IMG/VR virus record: IMGVR_UViG_3300031539_005138
Coordinates: 1-39,989 of that record
Direction: 5' to 3' (one strand)
Origin: a virus
Length of the DNA stretch: 39,989 nt
Part shown: positions 21,250 to 39,692 of the stretch, in pieces
How positions within the stretch are numbered: position 1 is the stretch's first letter
Layout: each line of letters opens with the position of its first letter
Position numbers and translations under genes: made by a program
Notes under the pieces: generated by a model
What the model was told of the DNA's origin: nothing
The model's input: the letters and a program-made list of their open reading frames with translations, nothing else
The model's database searches: none

Positions 21250-21326
21250 ACCAGGCGCAAGATGCTGCTACTCGGGTAGAATCCCAAGGTGAAGCGATTG
21301 CGGCGCGGCACGTCAAGCTCCTCTAA
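21246..21326 (+). CDS. Possible 26-codon leader ORF overlapping the groEL start (doubtful)
   Basis: ATG 21246 overlaps the preceding TGA in the ATGA arrangement used throughout this genome. It reads MNQAQDAATRVESQG then 11 more residues to TAA at 21324-21326. It runs past the GTG start of the chaperonin in another frame, so ribosomes ending here would stop 35 nt inside groEL. It could be a leader for coupling or simply chance. Confidence 0.25.
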   Translation: MNQAQDAATRVESQGEAIAARHVKLL

Positions 21327-22887
21327 GATCGCTACTGGAGCGGAGGCGCGAGAACGTCTAGTCCGAGGTGCGCGAGAATTATCGCGGGTCGTCCGTGTCA
21401 CTTACGGGCCGACCGGCGGGGTCGTCATGCTCGACCGATCCTTCGGGATGCTAGCGACACGAGATGGCGTTACGGTTGCGTGCGAGGTCAGTCCGGCGAA
21501 CCCCGTCGCACGCCTCGGAGCGCAGATGCTCCGACGTGCGTGCATCACCGTCAATGAAGAGGTCGGGGACGGTACGTCCACCGCGGCCTTGCTCGCAGGC
21601 GCGATGATCAACGAGGGGCATAAACGGATCACGGCCGGTGCGGACCCCGGTGAGCTTGCCAAGGGGATGCAGCACGCGGCAGCTATCGCGTCGGAGGTAG
21701 TAGGGCAGCTTGTGGTGCCTGTGGAAGATGAGGACACGCTTCAGCAGGTGGCACTTCACACGACCAAGCGAGACGTGGAGATTGCTGACGCGTTGGCCGA
21801 GGCGACCATGCTTGTCGGGTCGAAGGGGATGATCGTGATCGAGGACGGCAAGGGCGTAGGCATTGAGCTTGTGTCGAAGCACGGGGTCGAGATCAGTCAA
21901 GGGTGGGTGTCGATGGAATTCGGGGACGAGTGGAAAGCGGACGTGTGTCTCGTCGCCGTCGTTGCGGAACCCCTGATGAAATTCAGCGAGGTCGTTCCGA
22001 TGATGGAAGCCGCGTCGCAGGTTCCTGGCAACCTTCCTTTGCTCGTCGTGTGTGAAGGCGTCTACGGAGAAGCTCTCGCCACGATGGTGACGAACAACGG
22101 GAAAGACGTGCTCAAATGTTGCGCGATCAAGGGCCCGGGGAGGGGGCCTTTCCAGATGGACCACCTCCAAGACATTGCCGCGCTCAGCCAAGCGGTCGTC
22201 GTGGACACGAACGCCGGCATGTCCTTGGCCAAGTTTGAGTCGGCATGGCTCGGGTCGTTGCAGCAGGTTCGGGTTGGCGCACACAAGAGCACGCTTGTCG
22301 CTTTCGATGACGCCCTCCCTGCGATCCAAGATCGGATCCGAACGTTGGAGGTCCGACGTGACCGAACCGAGCACAACCATGACCGAGATCGGCTGTCCGA
22401 ACGGATCGCAAAGCTCGCCGATGGGTTTTGTGTCCTCCGTGTTGGCGGAGTGACCGAGGCAGCGGCCAAGGAGCGCCGTGGGCGGATCGAGGATGCGTTG
22501 CACGCGGTTCGCGCTGCATTGGACGAGGGCGTGGTTCCCGGCGCGGGAATGGCGTACCTCGCGGCGGCGGAGGTGCTGGAGGAGATCGGGTTCTCAGATG
22601 GCGATTTCGGGCAGGGCGAGAGGGTCGTCGTCAAGGCGCTCAGGGAGCCCGTGAGGGCGCTCGTCTCCAACGCGGGCGAGGAGCCGGCCGTGGTCCTGAA
22701 CGCGCTGAGAGAGGCGGGAGATGGCTCGTACTGGCTCGGATACGATGCTGTGGCCGGAACCATCCGAGATCTGCTAGAGAAGCCACTTTTGGCCGACCCT
22801 TTGCGCGTTGTCCGCTCCACAATTGAGGTCGCCGCGTCCGCGGCCTCGACATTGTTGACCGTAGAGGTCGCCATTACGAGTAAGTAG
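21289..22887 (+). CDS. groEL: GroEL-type chaperonin (532 aa)
   Basis: ATP-driven protein-folding ring subunit. Conserved equatorial motifs are present: VTYGPTGG (38-44) with the nucleotide-site Asp in VMLDRSFG (Asp49), TRDGVTVA (57-64), GDGTSTAA (93-100), and RIEDALHAVRAA with the catalytic Asp (Asp402, equivalent to E. coli Asp398), followed by DEGVVPGAG. The apical/intermediate segment has KGPGRGPF in place of the usual KAPGFGD. The C terminus GYDAVAG ... STIEVAASAASTLLT is typical, but the Gly-Gly-Met tail is missing and the protein ends EVAITSK. GTG is chosen because it gives a normal-length N terminus, although its ribosome site is weak. No GroES is seen in the window, so it would use the host co-chaperonin, work without one, or have one elsewhere. 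Large phages such as Pseudomonas phage EL are known to carry GroEL. Confidence 0.96.
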   Translation: MKRLRRGTSSSSKIATGAEARERLVRGARELSRVVRVTYGPTGGVVMLDRSFGMLATRDGVTVACEVSPANPVARLGAQMLRRACITVNEEVGDGTSTAALLAGAMINEGHKRITAGADPGELAKGMQHAAAIASEVVGQLVVPVEDEDTLQQVALHTTKRDVEIADALAEATMLVGSKGMIVIEDGKGVGIELVSKHGVEISQGWVSMEFGDEWKADVCLVAVVAEPLMKFSEVVPMMEAASQVPGNLPLLVVCEGVYGEALATMVTNNGKDVLKCCAIKGPGRGPFQMDHLQDIAALSQAVVVDTNAGMSLAKFESAWLGSLQQVRVGAHKSTLVAFDDALPAIQDRIRTLEVRRDRTEHNHDRDRLSERIAKLADGFCVLRVGGVTEAAAKERRGRIEDALHAVRAALDEGVVPGAGMAYLAAAEVLEEIGFSDGDFGQGERVVVKALREPVRALVSNAGEEPAVVLNALREAGDGSYWLGYDAVAGTIRDLLEKPLLADPLRVVRSTIEVAASAASTLLTVEVAITSK

Positions 22888-28712: not shown

Positions 28713-29146
28713 CTCAGATCGTCTTGCGGACGGGTGACTGCCGTGAGGTGCTCGCGTCGATCCCCGATAACTCGATCGACGTTGTAATTTGCGATCCCCC
28801 ATACGAGCTAAATTTCCTGGGCCAAAATTGGGACGGCAGCGGCGTCACCTACGACCCCGAGGTTTGGGCCGAAGTGTTTCGGGTGCTCAAGCCGACCGGC
28901 GTGATCAAGGCGTTCGGGGGGACGCGGACCTTTCATCGTCTTGCCGTCGCTCTGGAGGTTGCCGGCTTTGAGGGCGTGGGCACCCACCTGGAAGCATGGA
29001 CCTATGGCAGCGGCTACCCGAAATCTCTCAACGTTGCGAAGGCCCTGCGGAAGATCGAGTCCCCTGCGGCCGAGGTCTGGGAGGGGCATGGCACCGCCCT
29101 TAAGCCAGCCTGGGAGCCTGTTTTGGTCGGGAGGAAGCCAGGGTGA
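28709..29146 (+). CDS. DNA methyltransferase, N-terminal part with DPPY (145 aa)
   Basis: GTG 28709 gives MTQIVLRTGDCREVL, the usual start of a phage beta-class amino-methyltransferase; earlier in-frame starts would run into the zinc-ribbon gene. Catalytic motif IV DPPY is at residues 29-32, and VFRVLKPTGVIKAFGG (56-71) is the following strand-helix. The frame stops at 29146 just after WEPVLVGRKP, while the next gene starts at GTG 29143 and soon reads LGRKPLVSTVV, the expected continuation. The family is normally one chain, so this is half of an enzyme: two coupled subunits, a -1 frameshift product, or an assembly error. It adds a methyl group to adenine N6 or cytosine N4; which one cannot be told. 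Confidence 0.85.
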   Translation: MTQIVLRTGDCREVLASIPDNSIDVVICDPPYELNFLGQNWDGSGVTYDPEVWAEVFRVLKPTGVIKAFGGTRTFHRLAVALEVAGFEGVGTHLEAWTYGSGYPKSLNVAKALRKIESPAAEVWEGHGTALKPAWEPVLVGRKPG

Positions 29147-31476
29147 GAGCCATAACCCTTGGTCGTAAGCCGTTAGTCAGTACGGTTGTGCAAAACGTGA
29201 CTGAGCACGGGTGCGGGGCGTTCAATGTGGGCGCGACCCGTGTGGGGTCCGACAACGGCCGCTGGCCATCGAACCTCGTCCTCGCCCACCATCCCGGTTG
29301 CAAACAGGGTGGCACCACTATGGTGCCGGGGTACACGATCAACCGCTGGTCTGACGGGGCCAAGCCCTTCGGCGGAGGGGCGGGTCACGAGTACGAGAGT
29401 GAGAAAAAACCCGACGAGCATGTAACCGTGTGGGATTGCGCGCGAGGGTGTGGGACGGAAACTTTCAAGGTGCAGGGCCGCTCCTCGGGACACTACATCA
29501 AGGGGAGCCGCAAGGTCGGGGCCAAGCACGGGCCTGCCTCGATCCCGATTGACGGTGTTTTGTCTCGGTCCTATGCAGACGCGGGCGAGGCCACTCGCTA
29601 TTTCAAGCAGATACAGGAAACGAGCACGGGCGAGCTACCGCAGGAATTGATCGACTACTTGGAAAAGATGATCACCCCTCCCGATGGTGAGGTCTTGATC
29701 GTGCCGGACGTGTCGGCCGTCAACTGGGCGGAGTACGAGGATGCCCAACTTCACGGGGTCGTTGTCATCGGTACGAAGGCTGACGAGTTCAGCGGCAGCG
29801 ACACACTCGATCAGATCTGGCGCGTGCTTCGACCTGGGGCTCACGTTGCCATGATTGCACCCGACGAGCAGCAGACAGGGCACACGAACACCTGTGCCCT
29901 GGAGGACCGGGGGTTTGAGATCCGCGACTCCATCTTGCTTGTGCAAGAGCCAGGGCGTATCCACTACGTCGCCAAGGCCAGCACGCGAGAGCGGAACGCA
30001 GGCATCGCTCCGATCAAGAAGGAGGTCCAGATCGACTGGTGCTACCCCCGAGAGGACACGGACCTGGACGACCTCGCCGATGCCCTGGCCGAGATTCTCG
30101 ACTCCGAGATTCTTGAGGCCCTTGCTGATGAAGGGGTTGCGAAGGCTGAGATCCCCAAGGAGTTTCGGGACCGCTTCGACACCGTGAAGCTCAACAAGAT
30201 CATCACCGTGCAAAATGACCATCCAACGCTAAAACCAAAGGCGCTCATGGAGCGGCTCATGGCTGACGTGCCCGAGGGGGCGACAGTGCTTGACCCCTTC
30301 ATGGGGTGTTATGACGACCAGACGGAGGTACTGACGCGGACAGGGTGGAAACCATTCTCCGCTGTGGGGTTCGGGGACTGGTTCCTAACTCGATGTGGAT
30401 CGGGCAAAATCGAGTATCAGCTACCTACGGACTTACACCGCTATGCCTACTGCGGCGAAATGGTGCGTGTAAAAAGCCGGAGCACGGATCTCCTTGTCAC
30501 GCCCAACCACAACATGTGGGGGCTTACTCATGCCGATTTTAACGCAGGCAGGGAGCCCCGCATGGTGCGGGCGGACGCTTTGGACAGATCGGTTTACCGA
30601 ATTCCATCGGGAGGCCAGTACAAGCCTGAGCACGACCTGTTTGATCGTGCCACGATGTACCTCTTGGGGCTTTACGTCTCAGAGGGGTATCTTGACAGTG
30701 ATCGGCGCTACCCGAACGTGATCGTGACGCAGAATCAGGGGGAGAATTGGGACCAAATCATGGAGTGGTTGGCTCCTTTTGACCCGACGACGAAAGGCGA
30801 GCGCCGTATCTCCATCAGGGTTCCTTGGAGTCTTTACGGGCTCATTTACCAGCATTGCGGCGAATCAAAGTACAACAAGTTTCTGAGCGCAACGGTGTTG
30901 TCGAACAAGCATCTGGATGCCTTATTCGACGCGATGGTGCTGGGTGATGGGCACGTCCACAAGAAGCATGAGCAGGTGCAGTATTGGACGGTTAGTCCTC
31001 GGCTGGCGGGGGGTTTTCAAGAGCTTTGCGTCAAGCTGGGCTTCGGTTCCACGTTGCGCGTCTTGGACCCCAAAGACTCAGTGATGAGTGATGGGCGAAG
31101 GGTGCGAGGAACGACTGAATGCTTCAACATTTGCGTTACCCGATCGGCACATCGAAAGGTGTTGCCAGATAAACACCTCACCACCGAGCTTTATGATGGC
31201 GAGGTATTTTGCGTGACGGTCCCGAACCACACCCTCTATGTTCGTCGCAACGGACGCACTACTTGGTGTGGGAACAGCGGGACCACCGGGCTCGCCTGCA
31301 TAGCGACGAACCACAGCTTCATGGGCATCGACCTTGACGAGCACCACGTCAAGATCGCCAGTGCGCGTGCGCATTACTGGGAGTCGTGTGAACGTCGCCC
31401 GTGGTCGGCTGAGATCGACGCCGACGTTGAGCCGGAGGAACAGCCGGATCCCTTTGCCGGGATGTTTGAAGGCTAG
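29143..31476 (+). CDS. DNA methyltransferase, C-terminal part with embedded intein (777 aa precursor)
   Basis: Begins at GTG 29143 overlapping the N-terminal part's stop. TVVQNVTEHGCGAFNV and GRWPSNLVL are the typical mid-part of beta-class phage methyltransferases. An extra module of about 150-290 follows (PDVSAVNWAEYE ... WRVLRPGAHVAMIA ... DRGFEIRDS), which looks like a second, degenerate Rossmann-type segment without DPPY. NDHPTLKP leads to the SAM-binding motif LDPFMG, interrupted by an intein (codons 389-711). The motif resumes as SGTTGLACIATNHSFMGIDLD. After splicing the chain would be about 454 aa. It ends in a short acidic tail and shares CTAG with the convergent gene's stop. Motif order (IV before I) supports class beta. 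Confidence 0.85.
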   Translation: MRAITLGRKPLVSTVVQNVTEHGCGAFNVGATRVGSDNGRWPSNLVLAHHPGCKQGGTTMVPGYTINRWSDGAKPFGGGAGHEYESEKKPDEHVTVWDCARGCGTETFKVQGRSSGHYIKGSRKVGAKHGPASIPIDGVLSRSYADAGEATRYFKQIQETSTGELPQELIDYLEKMITPPDGEVLIVPDVSAVNWAEYEDAQLHGVVVIGTKADEFSGSDTLDQIWRVLRPGAHVAMIAPDEQQTGHTNTCALEDRGFEIRDSILLVQEPGRIHYVAKASTRERNAGIAPIKKEVQIDWCYPREDTDLDDLADALAEILDSEILEALADEGVAKAEIPKEFRDRFDTVKLNKIITVQNDHPTLKPKALMERLMADVPEGATVLDPFMGCYDDQTEVLTRTGWKPFSAVGFGDWFLTRCGSGKIEYQLPTDLHRYAYCGEMVRVKSRSTDLLVTPNHNMWGLTHADFNAGREPRMVRADALDRSVYRIPSGGQYKPEHDLFDRATMYLLGLYVSEGYLDSDRRYPNVIVTQNQGENWDQIMEWLAPFDPTTKGERRISIRVPWSLYGLIYQHCGESKYNKFLSATVLSNKHLDALFDAMVLGDGHVHKKHEQVQYWTVSPRLAGGFQELCVKLGFGSTLRVLDPKDSVMSDGRRVRGTTECFNICVTRSAHRKVLPDKHLTTELYDGEVFCVTVPNHTLYVRRNGRTTWCGNSGTTGLACIATNHSFMGIDLDEHHVKIASARAHYWESCERRPWSAEIDADVEPEEQPDPFAGMFEG
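30307..31275 (+). other. LAGLIDADG intein (323 aa) inside the methyltransferase SAM motif
   Basis: Self-splicing insert. It starts with Cys1 (CYDDQTEVLTRTGWKPF, block A) right after DPFMG. Block B is LLVTPNHNMWG. Two dodecapeptide-type motifs of a DOD homing endonuclease follow: LLGLYVSEGYL and LFDAMVLGDGHV. Block F is VFCVTVPNHTLYVRRNG, ending WCGN with Ser as the +1 residue. The last Asn and +1 Ser are canonical; the penultimate residue is Gly where His is usual, which is known in some inteins. Removal restores DPFMG-SGTTG. The DNA looks lower in GC than its flanks. Both acidic positions of the endonuclease motifs are present (SEG, GDG), so it may be active. Confidence 0.93.
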
Positions 31477-32459: not shown

Positions 32460-32513
32460 ATGAAGGAACCATGCCGACGGTGCGGGGGAAACGGCTTCAA
32501 GCCGGAGTTTCGA
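32419..32513 (+). repeat. 14-bp direct repeat AGCCGGAGTTTCGA, two copies
   Basis: Copy 1 at 32419-32432 in the divergent spacer, copy 2 at 32500-32513 inside the zinc-finger coding region, 81 bp apart. An exact 14-bp match at this distance is unlikely by chance. It may be a binding site for a regulator, possibly the zinc-finger protein itself. Confidence 0.7.
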
Positions 32514-32837
32514 CACGTTCAGAGCGGAATCTGCTTCCGTTGCGGCGGGACCCGCGTGGACCCTGGGGTCGCCCCGAGACGCCGGACGATCCGAAACCCT
32601 CGTCTTCTCTCGGATGCCGCGCGGGCTCGACTGGTCGCTCTCATGGTTTCGGGAGGGGTTTCGCGCTTTACGCGCCTGACCGATGTGGGCCGGGAGCTTG
32701 TGCGAGAGCGTCTCGTTGAGATCGATTTCACCGACGATGGTCGAATTGGGCTCGCCACCGCAACGGATCGGGGCTCTAAGAGCTTCGTACACGCGGTTCG
32801 GGCGGGTTTGGTTTCGGCACAGGCGCCGCTGGCGTAA
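32460..32837 (+). CDS. Zinc-finger, possibly winged-helix protein (125 aa)
   Basis: ATG 32460 has no strong ribosome site. The N terminus CRRCGGNG (5-12) and CFRCGG (25-30) forms a four-cysteine DnaJ-like or ribbon-type zinc site. A basic linker (APRRRTIRNPR) leads to a helical segment with VGRELVRERLVEIDFTDDGRIG (about 82-103), which looks like the recognition helix and wing of a winged-helix domain, and ends ATDRGSKSFVHAV. A DNA-binding regulator is a reasonable guess, given the divergent promoter and the repeated 14-mer at its own start. By-eye call. Confidence 0.6.
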   Translation: MKEPCRRCGGNGFKPEFRHVQSGICFRCGGTRVDPGVAPRRRTIRNPRLLSDAARARLVALMVSGGVSRFTRLTDVGRELVRERLVEIDFTDDGRIGLATATDRGSKSFVHAVRAGLVSAQAPLA

Positions 32838-32845
32838 GTAGGAGC

Positions 32846-33391
32846 ATGGTGATCCCCGCACGGACCTTCGCGCTCGATGCCCACACAGGGCAAATGTACG
32901 GCGACCAGCCCTACAGCATCCATCTTGACGCCGTGGCGGGCATCGTGCTCCAGCAATTCAAAGCCAATGCGACCGCCTTGGTCAACATGGGCGCTCCCGG
33001 GATGGAGGTGGCGGTGAGCGCCGCGTATCTCCACGATGTTGTGGAGGACACCGACGTGACCCTCGATCAGATCGAGGAAATGTACGGCGAGCACATCGCG
33101 GATGCCGTCGGGCTTTGCACCGACGAGCCGGGCAAGAATCGGAAGGAGCGGAAGGCGGCGACCTACGCCAAGATCGCCAGCCTCGACCGTGACCGCAACG
33201 GGGTCATCATCGGTCTCGTCGTCAAGGCGGCCGACCGTCTGGCCAACCTCAAAGCGTGCGTCGCCAGTCGGAATGACGATCTGCTGTCGATGTACCGCAA
33301 GGAGCACGCAGCATTCAGCGAGGCGGTGTGCGTCCCCGGTCTGTGTGACGACCTGTGGGCTCAGATCAACGCGATCGTGGAGGCGGGCTGA
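32846..33391 (+). CDS. HD-domain hydrolase of the RelA/SpoT/Mesh1 type; likely (p)ppGpp hydrolase (181 aa)
   Basis: Small HD enzyme. HTGQMYGDQPYSIHL (13-27) with His26, YLHDVVEDT (61-69) with His63-Asp64 and Glu67-Asp68, and VKAADRLANL (126-135) with Asp130 give the full metal-binding set and order of the RelA/SpoT HD hydrolase domain. Length fits a stand-alone small alarmone hydrolase, with no synthetase or TGS domain. It would cleave (p)ppGpp and relieve the host stringent response, or degrade a related nucleotide. AGGAG ends one base before ATG 32846; the GTG at 32849 would have better spacing. Two Cys near the C terminus (VCVPGLCDD) are unusual. Substrate is inferred from family. Confidence 0.82.
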   Translation: MVIPARTFALDAHTGQMYGDQPYSIHLDAVAGIVLQQFKANATALVNMGAPGMEVAVSAAYLHDVVEDTDVTLDQIEEMYGEHIADAVGLCTDEPGKNRKERKAATYAKIASLDRDRNGVIIGLVVKAADRLANLKACVASRNDDLLSMYRKEHAAFSEAVCVPGLCDDLWAQINAIVEAG

Positions 33392-33392
33392 G

Positions 33393-33779
33393 ATGCAACA
33401 CCGAGAAGTATCTTTCCCCGAGGCGGCCAGCATGGGCGACCTGTTTGATGCCATCGAGGGCGTGGACGGGCACAACGAGGACCCCTTTTCCGCCGACCAC
33501 GTGTCGCTCCCCGGGAGTTCCGTGATCGGATCCTTTTGCAGCGGGCATCGCCTCAAAGCGGAAGCCCGCTACATCCGGGTGAAGCCGAACGCCGCCGTGG
33601 TCGATGCGATCCGCTTGCGCGCGCTCACCGACCACGACACTTGGTCCTTCGGGCTCGTGGAGAGGGCCGACGGAATGGTCCTGGTCACGGCGCAGCCCAG
33701 CAAAATTCTCAGCAGCCTGTGGCTGGCACTCATCCCAGTGGGCTCGATCCCGAGCCACCTTTTTGAACCGGAGACCTAA
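33393..33779 (+). CDS. Hypothetical protein (128 aa)
   Basis: ATG 33393 is the start closest to the preceding stop, with GGAGG about 10 nt upstream; the frame is open further upstream only as a shadow of the HD gene. The product is acidic at the N terminus (FDAIEGVDGHNEDPF), then has alternating hydrophobic strands (WSFGLVERADGMVLVTAQ) and a LSSLWLALIPVG segment. No known domain is recognised. It is followed directly by the next ATG. Confidence 0.65.
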   Translation: MQHREVSFPEAASMGDLFDAIEGVDGHNEDPFSADHVSLPGSSVIGSFCSGHRLKAEARYIRVKPNAAVVDAIRLRALTDHDTWSFGLVERADGMVLVTAQPSKILSSLWLALIPVGSIPSHLFEPET

Positions 33780-37706: not shown

Positions 37707-39692
37707 ATGACCGTTACCGATGTAGAAGCTATCGCCACGCTGCTCCGCCAAGCAGCCGACGCCTATTACAATTCTGACCCGATCATGTCGGACGCCGAGT
37801 ACGATTCGCTGGAGGACCAGCTACGCGAGGCGGAACCAAAGCATGAATTCCTGAAGCACGTGGGGGCGAAGGCGTCGAGTGGTTGGGAGAAGGCCGCCCA
37901 CATCGTTCCGATGGGTTCGCTCGACAAGGTGACGGATATCGAGTCCCTCGCTGCTTGGTTTCACAACCGCGAGGGTGCAGTCCTCGATTGGTACACGAAC
38001 AACCTCCGTGGCGTGGAACAGACGGCGGCGAAAAATACCTTCCGCGATCAGGGTGAGGTCGTCGTCTCGGAGAAATGCGATGGCATCTCGATCAGTCTTC
38101 GGTACGAGGATGGTGTGCTCGTCCAGGCGATCACGCGTGGTGACGGCGAAGAGGGCGACGACATTACGCGCAACGTGAAGTTGATGAAGGGGGTCCAACA
38201 CGAACTCGCCGATTTCTCAGGCCATCTACGCGGCGAGATTGTCCTGTTCCGATCCGATCACGAACAGATCCCCGACTACAAGAACCCTCGCAACGCTGCG
38301 AGTGGCATCGCCAAACGGCAGTCGGATCCGAGTCAGTGCAAGTACCTCACCGTGCTTCACTATCGGGCCCTCCGTGACGGAGGCAAGACGATCAAGGACA
38401 AAGCCACCGAGTTCAAGTTGCTGGAAGCGCTCGGGTGTACGACGCCCTTCTGGACCGTCGTCCCAGGTCGAGCCGTGAAGATCCAAGAGGTCTACGACGA
38501 GTACGTCAGCGGGAAGCGCGAGAGGATCGATTGGGAGATCGATGGCCTCGTGGTCGAGTACAACGTCCCCGACTACATGGACATTCTGGGGGTGTCGAGT
38601 GGTAAGCCCAAGGGTGCGGTCGCTCTGAAATTCCCCCACATGGAGGCGGTGACGACCATCCTCGATATCGTGTGGTCGGTCGGCAAGGCGGGTCGGATCA
38701 CGCCGGTCGCCATCGTGGAGCCTGTGAACCTTGCGGGCGTGACCGTCACCAACCCGAACCTCCACAACATCGCCAAGATCGAGAATCTGGCTGACGACGT
38801 GGGCAAGGAATTCCTGGCTCCGGGTGATCAGGTGGTCGTGTCTCGACGCAACGACGTGATCCCCTACATCGAGCGTGCGCTCCTCGGCGGGAAAGGGACG
38901 CCCTTTGCGATTCCTGACAAGTGCCCGTGCTGCGACTATCCCACGGAGCGCGAGGGCGCGTACCTCGTGTGTCCGAACGGCTCGTTGTGTTCGGCGCAGA
39001 GGGTCGGCACCATCCGCCGTTGGGTTGAGAAGCTCGGGATCAAGCACATCGGATCCAAAGCCATCGAGGCGATGGTCGAGAACGGGGTCAACGAAATCTC
39101 CGACCTGTACGCCGTCGTTCAGAACCCAAAGGCGCTCGGGGCAATGGAGGTCGGCGGGAAGAAGCTCGGGCTCTCCTCCGCCAAGAAAATGAAGGCGAAC
39201 CTGGAGGCTCGGATGGAGCTTTCGATCTCCGAGTTTCTCGGCTCGATGGGCATCCCCCTGTGTGGGCGTTCGACGTGCATGACAATCACCCGGGACAACA
39301 GCGTGACGTTGCAGGAGCTACGCGAGGGCTACGACGAGAGCACCCTCTCCGCCATCGACGGCATGGGTGCGAAGCGTGCAAAGGCGTTCTTCAATGGCTT
39401 CCATGCTCGTGAGAAGCAGATCGCCAATCTCCTTGCTGCTGGGATCACACTCAAGAAGCCTGTGACCGATGGGGCGCTTCAAGGCAAGACCTTCTGCTTC
39501 ACGAATTTCCGAGACAAGAAGGCCGAGCAGGCCATCGCCGATGCCGGGGGCGTCGTCAAATCCAGCGTCGGCAAGACGCTGAATTACCTTGTCACGTCCG
39601 ATCCCTCCGCCACGACCGGCAAAACCAAGAAGGCCCGCGACTACGGCGTCACGATTCTATCCCCCGACGAATTGCGGCTCCTGCTCGCCTAA
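37707..39692 (+). CDS. ligA: NAD-dependent DNA ligase with BRCT domain (661 aa)
   Basis: Seals nicks using NAD+. All LigA parts are present in order: Ia domain YYNSDPIMSDAEYD (20-33), nucleotide-transfer motif KCDG with Lys123, TRGDGEEGDD, LRGEIVLF, NPRNAASG, EIDGLVVEYN, KPKGAVALKF, and an OB fold with SVGKAGRITPVA. The zinc finger has Cys406, Cys409, Cys422 and Cys428. Helix-hairpin-helix repeats (LGIKHIGSKAIEAM, IPLCGRSTC, IDGMGAKRAKAF) and a BRCT domain (about 591-661, GKTFCFTNFRDKKAE) complete it. Length and parts match bacterial LigA, with none truncated, which is less common in phages than the ATP type. ATG 37707 has a modest GGAAAAG site. It likely serves phage replication with the helicases upstream. 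Confidence 0.97.
   Translation: MTVTDVEAIATLLRQAADAYYNSDPIMSDAEYDSLEDQLREAEPKHEFLKHVGAKASSGWEKAAHIVPMGSLDKVTDIESLAAWFHNREGAVLDWYTNNLRGVEQTAAKNTFRDQGEVVVSEKCDGISISLRYEDGVLVQAITRGDGEEGDDITRNVKLMKGVQHELADFSGHLRGEIVLFRSDHEQIPDYKNPRNAASGIAKRQSDPSQCKYLTVLHYRALRDGGKTIKDKATEFKLLEALGCTTPFWTVVPGRAVKIQEVYDEYVSGKRERIDWEIDGLVVEYNVPDYMDILGVSSGKPKGAVALKFPHMEAVTTILDIVWSVGKAGRITPVAIVEPVNLAGVTVTNPNLHNIAKIENLADDVGKEFLAPGDQVVVSRRNDVIPYIERALLGGKGTPFAIPDKCPCCDYPTEREGAYLVCPNGSLCSAQRVGTIRRWVEKLGIKHIGSKAIEAMVENGVNEISDLYAVVQNPKALGAMEVGGKKLGLSSAKKMKANLEARMELSISEFLGSMGIPLCGRSTCMTITRDNSVTLQELREGYDESTLSAIDGMGAKRAKAFFNGFHAREKQIANLLAAGITLKKPVTDGALQGKTFCFTNFRDKKAEQAIADAGGVVKSSVGKTLNYLVTSDPSATTGKTKKARDYGVTILSPDELRLLLA

What the first reader, a model, noticed from the sequence alone, without database searches (positions are those of the whole stretch)
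32846..33391. Phage-encoded alarmone-hydrolase-like HD enzyme
Complete metal-binding set (His26, His63-Asp64, Glu67-Asp68, Asp130) in the RelA/SpoT hydrolase order, and no synthetase. It may remove (p)ppGpp made on infection, or clear a nucleotide signal used in host defence.
Basis: partly seen in the sequence, partly recalled or inferred. Interest (0 to 1): 0.6.

Follow-up and report, generated by a model that had tools for sequence, protein, structure and literature searches.

The report
Phage small alarmone hydrolase lacking Arg-Lys
A large uncultured phage carries a small enzyme of the family that breaks down bacterial alarm nucleotides; such phage enzymes are already known, but this one belongs to a mostly phage-borne branch that lacks an arginine the classical ppGpp-cleaving enzymes need, so its real target may be a different, adenosine-based signal or a toxin's damage to tRNA.

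Summary
ORF 32846-33391(+) encodes 181 aa with the full metal-binding/catalytic set (H26, H63-D64, E67-D68, D130), and no synthetase domain was found in the window. Homology is far above chance (PHROG_990 2.6e-29; PDB profile search 3.6e-24). AlphaFold gives pLDDT 95.7, and Foldseek's 44 best PDB hits are all alarmone hydrolases, led by Pseudomonas aeruginosa SAH. "Alarmone-hydrolase-like" is therefore right.

The implied RelA/SpoT-type ppGpp reading is weaker. HD motif 1, the Arg-Lys pair (Arg44 of RelSeq; R44Q abolishes hydrolysis), is missing, as in 52 of 52 relatives in a mainly phage and plasmid branch; 48 of 50 sequences on the side holding Rel, SpoT, Mesh1 and phage SSU5 PaSpo keep the Arg. 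P. aeruginosa SAH, reported to degrade (p)ppGpp and (p)ppApp, and the (p)ppApp hydrolase Aph1 also lack the Arg.

Most likely it is a small alarmone hydrolase with relaxed or adenine-directed specificity that removes (p)ppApp, (p)ppGpp or the 3'-pyrophosphate that toxSAS toxins put on tRNA. Substrate and role are untested. Phage SAHs as counter-defence were predicted and partly shown before: a new member of a known kind, of modest interest.

The parts
32846..33391 (+). small alarmone hydrolase-like HD protein, 181 aa (start ATG 32846; GTG 32849 also possible, since AGGAG at 32840-32844 lies only 1 nt before the ATG)
32882..32914 (+). residues 13-23 HTGQMYGDQPY: place of RSH HD motif 1; the Arg-Lys of QxRK(Y)xGxPY is deleted
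32921..32923 (+). His26, metal ligand (RelSeq His53)
33032..33037 (+). His63-Asp64, the HD pair (RelSeq His77-Asp78)
33044..33049 (+). Glu67-Asp68, the ED motif (HD4)
33224..33247 (+). Lys127-x-x-Asp130-x-x-x-Asn134 (RelSeq Asp144 and Asn148): metal ligand and base/phosphate contact
33293..33295 (+). Tyr150, conserved in all 46 sequences of the YG group
32460..32837 (+). upstream ORF, 125 aa with a CxxC...CxxC zinc-ribbon-like start; ends 8 nt before the hydrolase gene; function unknown
33393..33779 (+). downstream ORF, 128 aa, starts 1 nt after the hydrolase stop; no family match

Best explanation
The gene encodes a catalytically competent single-domain alarmone hydrolase: a metal ion (Mn2+ in relatives) held by His26, His63, Asp64 and Asp130, with Glu67-Asp68 activating water, removes the 3'-pyrophosphate from a purine nucleotide. 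Because the Arg-Lys of HD motif 1 that guanine-specific Rel enzymes use is deleted, its specificity is probably relaxed or adenine-directed, as in P. aeruginosa SAH and Aph1: (p)ppApp, possibly (p)ppGpp, possibly pyrophosphorylated tRNA ends. In infection it would undo alarmones, or the products of toxSAS-type defence toxins, that would otherwise stop host metabolism. Shown here: gene, family, conserved residues, missing Arg-Lys, modelled fold. Inferred: activity, substrate, role.
For: Catalytic set complete and conserved. AlphaFold pLDDT 95.7, pTM 0.92; Foldseek ranks 1-6 and 8 are P. aeruginosa SAH, the other top-44 hits are Mesh1, RelH, Rel, SpoT, Lmo0812, TdAct and Aph1. The profile of the branch best matches P. 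aeruginosa SAH, 3.6e-24. Arg-Lys absent in 52/52 YG and P. aeruginosa SAH-like sequences, Arg present in 48/50 of the other side. P. aeruginosa SAH lacks it and Aph1 has Asp-Lys, yet both hydrolyse (p)ppApp (PMC9765508, PMC12226406). In the careful tree Aph1 falls inside the YG branch, 96/92. SAHs from phage SSU5 and from the FaRel operon undo toxSAS products.
Against: Apart from Aph1, whose place is unsure, no member of the YG branch found here has a tested activity. Aph1 sits on a long branch and the AU test does not reject placing it (p 0.32) or the window protein (p 0.24) with the Arg-Lys group. Mesh1, which has Arg-Lys, still cleaves (p)ppApp, so Arg-Lys does not by itself set base choice. 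No toxSAS target or host is known; neighbouring genes give no functional hint.
Confidence: 0.55

Rival explanations
1. A Rel/SpoT-like (p)ppGpp hydrolase that relieves the host's stringent response during infection.
For: Sequence hits to Rel hydrolase domains (3e-9) and TIGR00691; P. aeruginosa SAH, without the Arg-Lys, is reported to degrade (p)ppGpp too; 3'-pyrophosphate chemistry is the same.
Against: Arg44, needed in RelSeq, is deleted with Lys45 in the whole branch; the profile and fold rank P. aeruginosa SAH and Mesh1 above Rel.
Confidence: 0.2
2. A 3'- or 2'-phosphatase acting on a cofactor such as NADPH or PAPS, as reported for Mesh1, so that the phage tunes host redox or sulfur metabolism.
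For: Foldseek hits to Mesh1-NADPH and Mesh1-PAPS complexes; some relatives lie near NAD genes: Salinivibrio next to nadE and a nicotinate-nucleotide adenylyltransferase, Caulobacter-type phages about 2.5 kb from an NMN adenylyltransferase/nudix gene.
Against: The NAD neighbours are few and not seen elsewhere; SAHMex shows no NADPH hydrolysis and Mesh1's is weak beside its alarmone activity (PMC7644958).
Confidence: 0.1
3. An HD phosphohydrolase of another, non-alarmone kind, or an inactive or purely regulatory relative.
For: The branch lacks one motif of the family and hardly any of its members has been assayed.
Against: Catalytic residues are kept in nearly all of 102 diverse sequences; the first non-alarmone fold hit (YqeK) comes only at E 0.088 after 44 alarmone hydrolases.
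Confidence: 0.12

Closest known systems
Pseudomonas aeruginosa small alarmone hydrolase SAH (PDB 6yvc, 6z3n, 6z3o)
   Same: single HD domain; same catalytic set; no Arg-Lys in HD motif 1; His-Leu at the first metal His; best fold and profile match
   Different: about 22% identity; chromosomal; longer HD1 loop; triple proline after the Asn that the window protein lacks
Aph1 (p)ppApp hydrolase (PDB 7smg, Bacteroides caccae; immunity to MuF toxin Apk2)
   Same: small single-domain hydrolase without the HD1 Arg; placed near YG-type phage proteins in the tree, not firmly
   Different: low similarity (22% over 133 columns); Asp-Lys and His-Pro; encoded beside its toxin, whereas no synthetase is seen here
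PaSpo of Salmonella phage SSU5
   Same: phage-encoded SAH, same catalytic set; undoes toxSAS tRNA pyrophosphorylation (PMC11559606); taken here to be SSU5_099, the only HD_4-like gene seen in the record
   Different: has HD1 Arg-Lys and His-Pro; lies on the other side of the tree
HD protein of Pakpunaviruses (Pseudomonas phage Adele PaAdele_032, PMC12846349; PaYy-2 homologue L020)
   Same: PaYy-2 protein is of the same Arg-Lys-less YG type; Adele's was already named a small alarmone hydrolase
   Different: about 29% identity to the window protein; untested; that the Adele and PaYy-2 genes correspond is inferred from genus, not compared here
HD-alarmone PDEase of jumbo phages (Iyer et al. 2021, PMC7824862)
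   Same: same proposed role, destroying alarmone signals in host defence
   Different: the cited example BBI90576.1 is a different, divergent 325-aa protein

Membership tests
Small alarmone hydrolase (SAH) of the RSH superfamily | HD fold of the RSH hydrolase domain | tested here: met
   AlphaFold pLDDT 95.7; Foldseek top 44 all alarmone hydrolases
Small alarmone hydrolase (SAH) of the RSH superfamily | metal ligands H...HD...D and catalytic ED | tested here: met
   H26, H63-D64, E67-D68, D130
Small alarmone hydrolase (SAH) of the RSH superfamily | HD motif 1 Arg-Lys (RelSeq Arg44-Lys45); not a strict requirement, since P. aeruginosa SAH, an accepted member, lacks it | tested here: not met
   deleted in the window protein and in all of its branch
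Small alarmone hydrolase (SAH) of the RSH superfamily | hydrolase domain alone, no synthetase domain | tested here: met
   181 aa, single domain; PF04607 absent from the window
Small alarmone hydrolase (SAH) of the RSH superfamily | Mn2+-dependent hydrolysis of 3'-pyrophosphorylated nucleotides | not testable with these tools
   needs a bench assay
Aph1 (p)ppApp hydrolases | published specificity signature of (p)ppApp hydrolases | not tested
   the defining paper (Ahmad et al. 2023) is not held
Aph1 (p)ppApp hydrolases | shared clade with Aph1 | tested here: inconclusive
   inside the branch, but alternatives not rejected (AU p 0.32)
Long RSH (RelA/SpoT/Rel) | synthetase and regulatory domains after the hydrolase domain | tested here: not met
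   single 181-aa domain

The most novel reading that the evidence does not exclude
The Arg-Lys-less YG branch, found in hundreds of phages and some plasmids, is a distinct counter-defence lineage that has given up guanine recognition and works on the products of toxSAS-type abortive-infection enzymes (pppApp, or the 3'-pyrophosphate on the tRNA CCA end) rather than on ppGpp.
Probability: 0.2. Interest if true: 0.65.

Novelty: new member of a known kind. Interest (0 to 1): 0.33.

Why it matters
Phage HD proteins of this kind are annotated variously as GTP pyrophosphokinase, SpoT/RelA synthetase or phosphohydrolase. Showing that most of a large branch lacks the guanine-contacting Arg-Lys warns against reading them as ppGpp hydrolases and points to a testable alternative: reversal of (p)ppApp or tRNA pyrophosphorylation by phage-defence toxins. 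If confirmed, it would identify a common phage answer to toxSAS defence.

Tried and rejected
Other HD families (YqeK-like, general HD): only weak fold hits after the alarmone hydrolases. Genomic context: tRNA genes lie near 5 of 35 loci of the branch and 8 of 33 of the other type, with a rough automatic typing that misplaced a few, so no enrichment; RtcB, RNA ligase and Pth2 neighbours were sporadic; a metallophosphoesterase neighbour is recurrent but occurs with both types. Defence-gene models gave nothing for the hydrolase or its direct neighbours. A functional replacement for Arg44 by the NRKER stretch (residues 98-102) was considered; that Arg/Lys is also common on the Arg-Lys side, so it does not explain the loss. 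The single-clade status of the branch is not proven: AU tests do not reject alternatives. BBI90576.1, the published jumbo-phage example, is not of this type. Papers defining Aph1 and P. aeruginosa SAH are not held, so their details come from papers citing them.

Full report
Observation. The ORF at 32846-33391 (+) encodes 181 residues. Homology is well beyond chance: Pfam HD_4 1.4e-6, PHROG_990 'metal-dependent phosphohydrolase' 2.6e-29, the hydrolase part of TIGR00691 spoT_relA 4.6e-14, Rel hydrolase domains in the PDB 3e-9. No RelA_SpoT synthetase domain was found in the 40-kb window. The record is a linear IMG/VR contig, collinear with LR745208.1, an uncultured 485-kb phage: SNF2 helicase 56.5%, DnaB-like helicase 51%, a large 1,870-aa protein 43%. 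So it is a piece of a probably very large phage, and genes outside the window cannot be ruled out. The gene sits in a tight row of same-strand genes: 8 nt after the upstream ORF, 1 nt before the next.

Relatives. tblastn finds 433 phage records and 257 plasmids with related proteins, none above 60% identity. The best relative is from a Planctomycetota MAG (48%); in 199 genomes of that phylum only this one has a protein of this type (209 bits; the next, of other types, 95 bits). A profile search brought 80 viral loci.

The missing motif. Alignment of 102 sequences, with groups taken from the careful tree, shows a clean split. On one side, 48 of 50 sequences carry the Arg of HD motif 1 (43 with the following Lys), mostly QxRKxxGxPYxxHP; this side holds Rel, Mesh1, Lmo0812, long RSHs and phage SSU5 PaSpo. 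On the other side, the YG group (46) and the P. aeruginosa SAH group (6) lack the dipeptide in every case; YG proteins read HGxQxYGxxPYxxHL, with Leu in place of Pro after the first metal His in 44 of 46. The remaining catalytic residues are kept throughout: H13, H26, H63, D64, E67, D68, K127, D130 (one exception), N134 and Y150 in the YG group. The window protein reads HTGQMYGDQPYSIHL. The groups were named after seeing the sequences, and the motif columns were not left out of the tree, so the split is a description, not an independent test.

Why that matters. In RelSeq Arg44 contacts the guanine base and Asn148, and R44Q abolishes hydrolysis (PMC13299517); RelR44Q is also used as a hydrolase-defective control (PMC9765508). 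But P. [quoted passage not shown] 2021 as cited in PMC12846349; a later paper speaks of a (p)ppApp-specific hydrolase PaSAH, PMC12691689, and may mean another protein). Aph1, a (p)ppApp hydrolase, has Asp-Lys there. RelSeq, with Arg-Lys, cleaves ppGpp and not ppApp (PMC7644958). So the loss does not predict inactivity; it makes guanine-only specificity unlikely and adenine tolerance plausible. Mesh1, which has Arg-Lys and cleaves both, shows that the motif is not the sole determinant.

Structure. AlphaFold from 42 sequences gives mean pLDDT 95.7 and pTM 0.92. Foldseek against the PDB ranks P. aeruginosa SAH first (E 6e-6, TM 0.74), then Mesh1 and RelH; Rel and Aph1 follow, and the first non-alarmone hydrolase is rank 45. 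Viral models of similar fold are phage phosphohydrolases.

Tree. A careful tree puts the window protein with other Arg-Lys-less phage, plasmid and MAG proteins and Aph1 inside that group (96/92) near Pakpunavirus PaYy-2. AU tests do not reject moving Aph1 (p 0.32) or the window protein (p 0.24) to the Arg-Lys side; deep branching is unresolved.

Role. Phage SAHs acting against toxSAS are established in one case: PaSpo of phage SSU5 removes the tRNA modification made by FaRel2 (PMC11559606), and the SAH of the FaRel operon promiscuously neutralises toxSAS products (PMC11782079). Iyer et al. predicted alarmone-destroying HD enzymes in jumbo phages (PMC7824862), and the Pakpunavirus Adele protein was named an SAH with substrate unresolved (PMC12846349). 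For the window gene the counter-defence role is inferred from these cases and from the absence of a synthetase; nothing in its neighbourhood adds to it.

Verdict. The family assignment is right, with one RSH motif tested and not met, as in the accepted SAH of P. aeruginosa. The substrate is more likely (p)ppApp, both purine alarmones, or a toxSAS product than ppGpp alone. It is a new member of a known kind; the interest lies in the widespread Arg-Lys-less branch.

Noticed in passing
window 29143-31476 (+): DNA N6/N4 methylase ORF interrupted by an intein-like insert: starts CYDDQTEVLTRTGW, ends near WCGNSGTTG, with a LAGLIDADG_3 match at residues 595-641.
   Followed up: partly
window 21289-22887 (+): Chaperonin-60 (GroEL-like) gene on the phage contig, about 36% identical at most to those in phage records.
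   Followed up: partly
window 1-32400 against LR745208.1 (L127): The window is partly collinear with an uncultured 485-kb phage, which suggests a 40-kb piece of a huge phage.
   Followed up: partly
L129 1477-1713 (-) and L128 1276-2028 (+), both LR745208.1: The related huge phage has only the N-terminal start of a YG-type hydrolase (ARQFAVQAHGDQEYGDQPYEAYL, 78-aa ORF) and a second HD protein with an Arg-Lys-type motif.
   Followed up: partly
phage loci such as L023 1447-2016, L063, L069, L074, L075, L079, L092: A metallophosphoesterase gene recurs within 1-2 kb of phage SAH genes of both types.
   Followed up: partly
L006, L009 (phage records): Single-domain hydrolases are annotated 'GTP pyrophosphokinase' or 'SpoT/RelA (p)ppGpp synthetase', although they hold only the hydrolase domain.
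   Followed up: no
window 37707-39692 (+): NAD-dependent DNA ligase gene (LigA-like).
   Followed up: no
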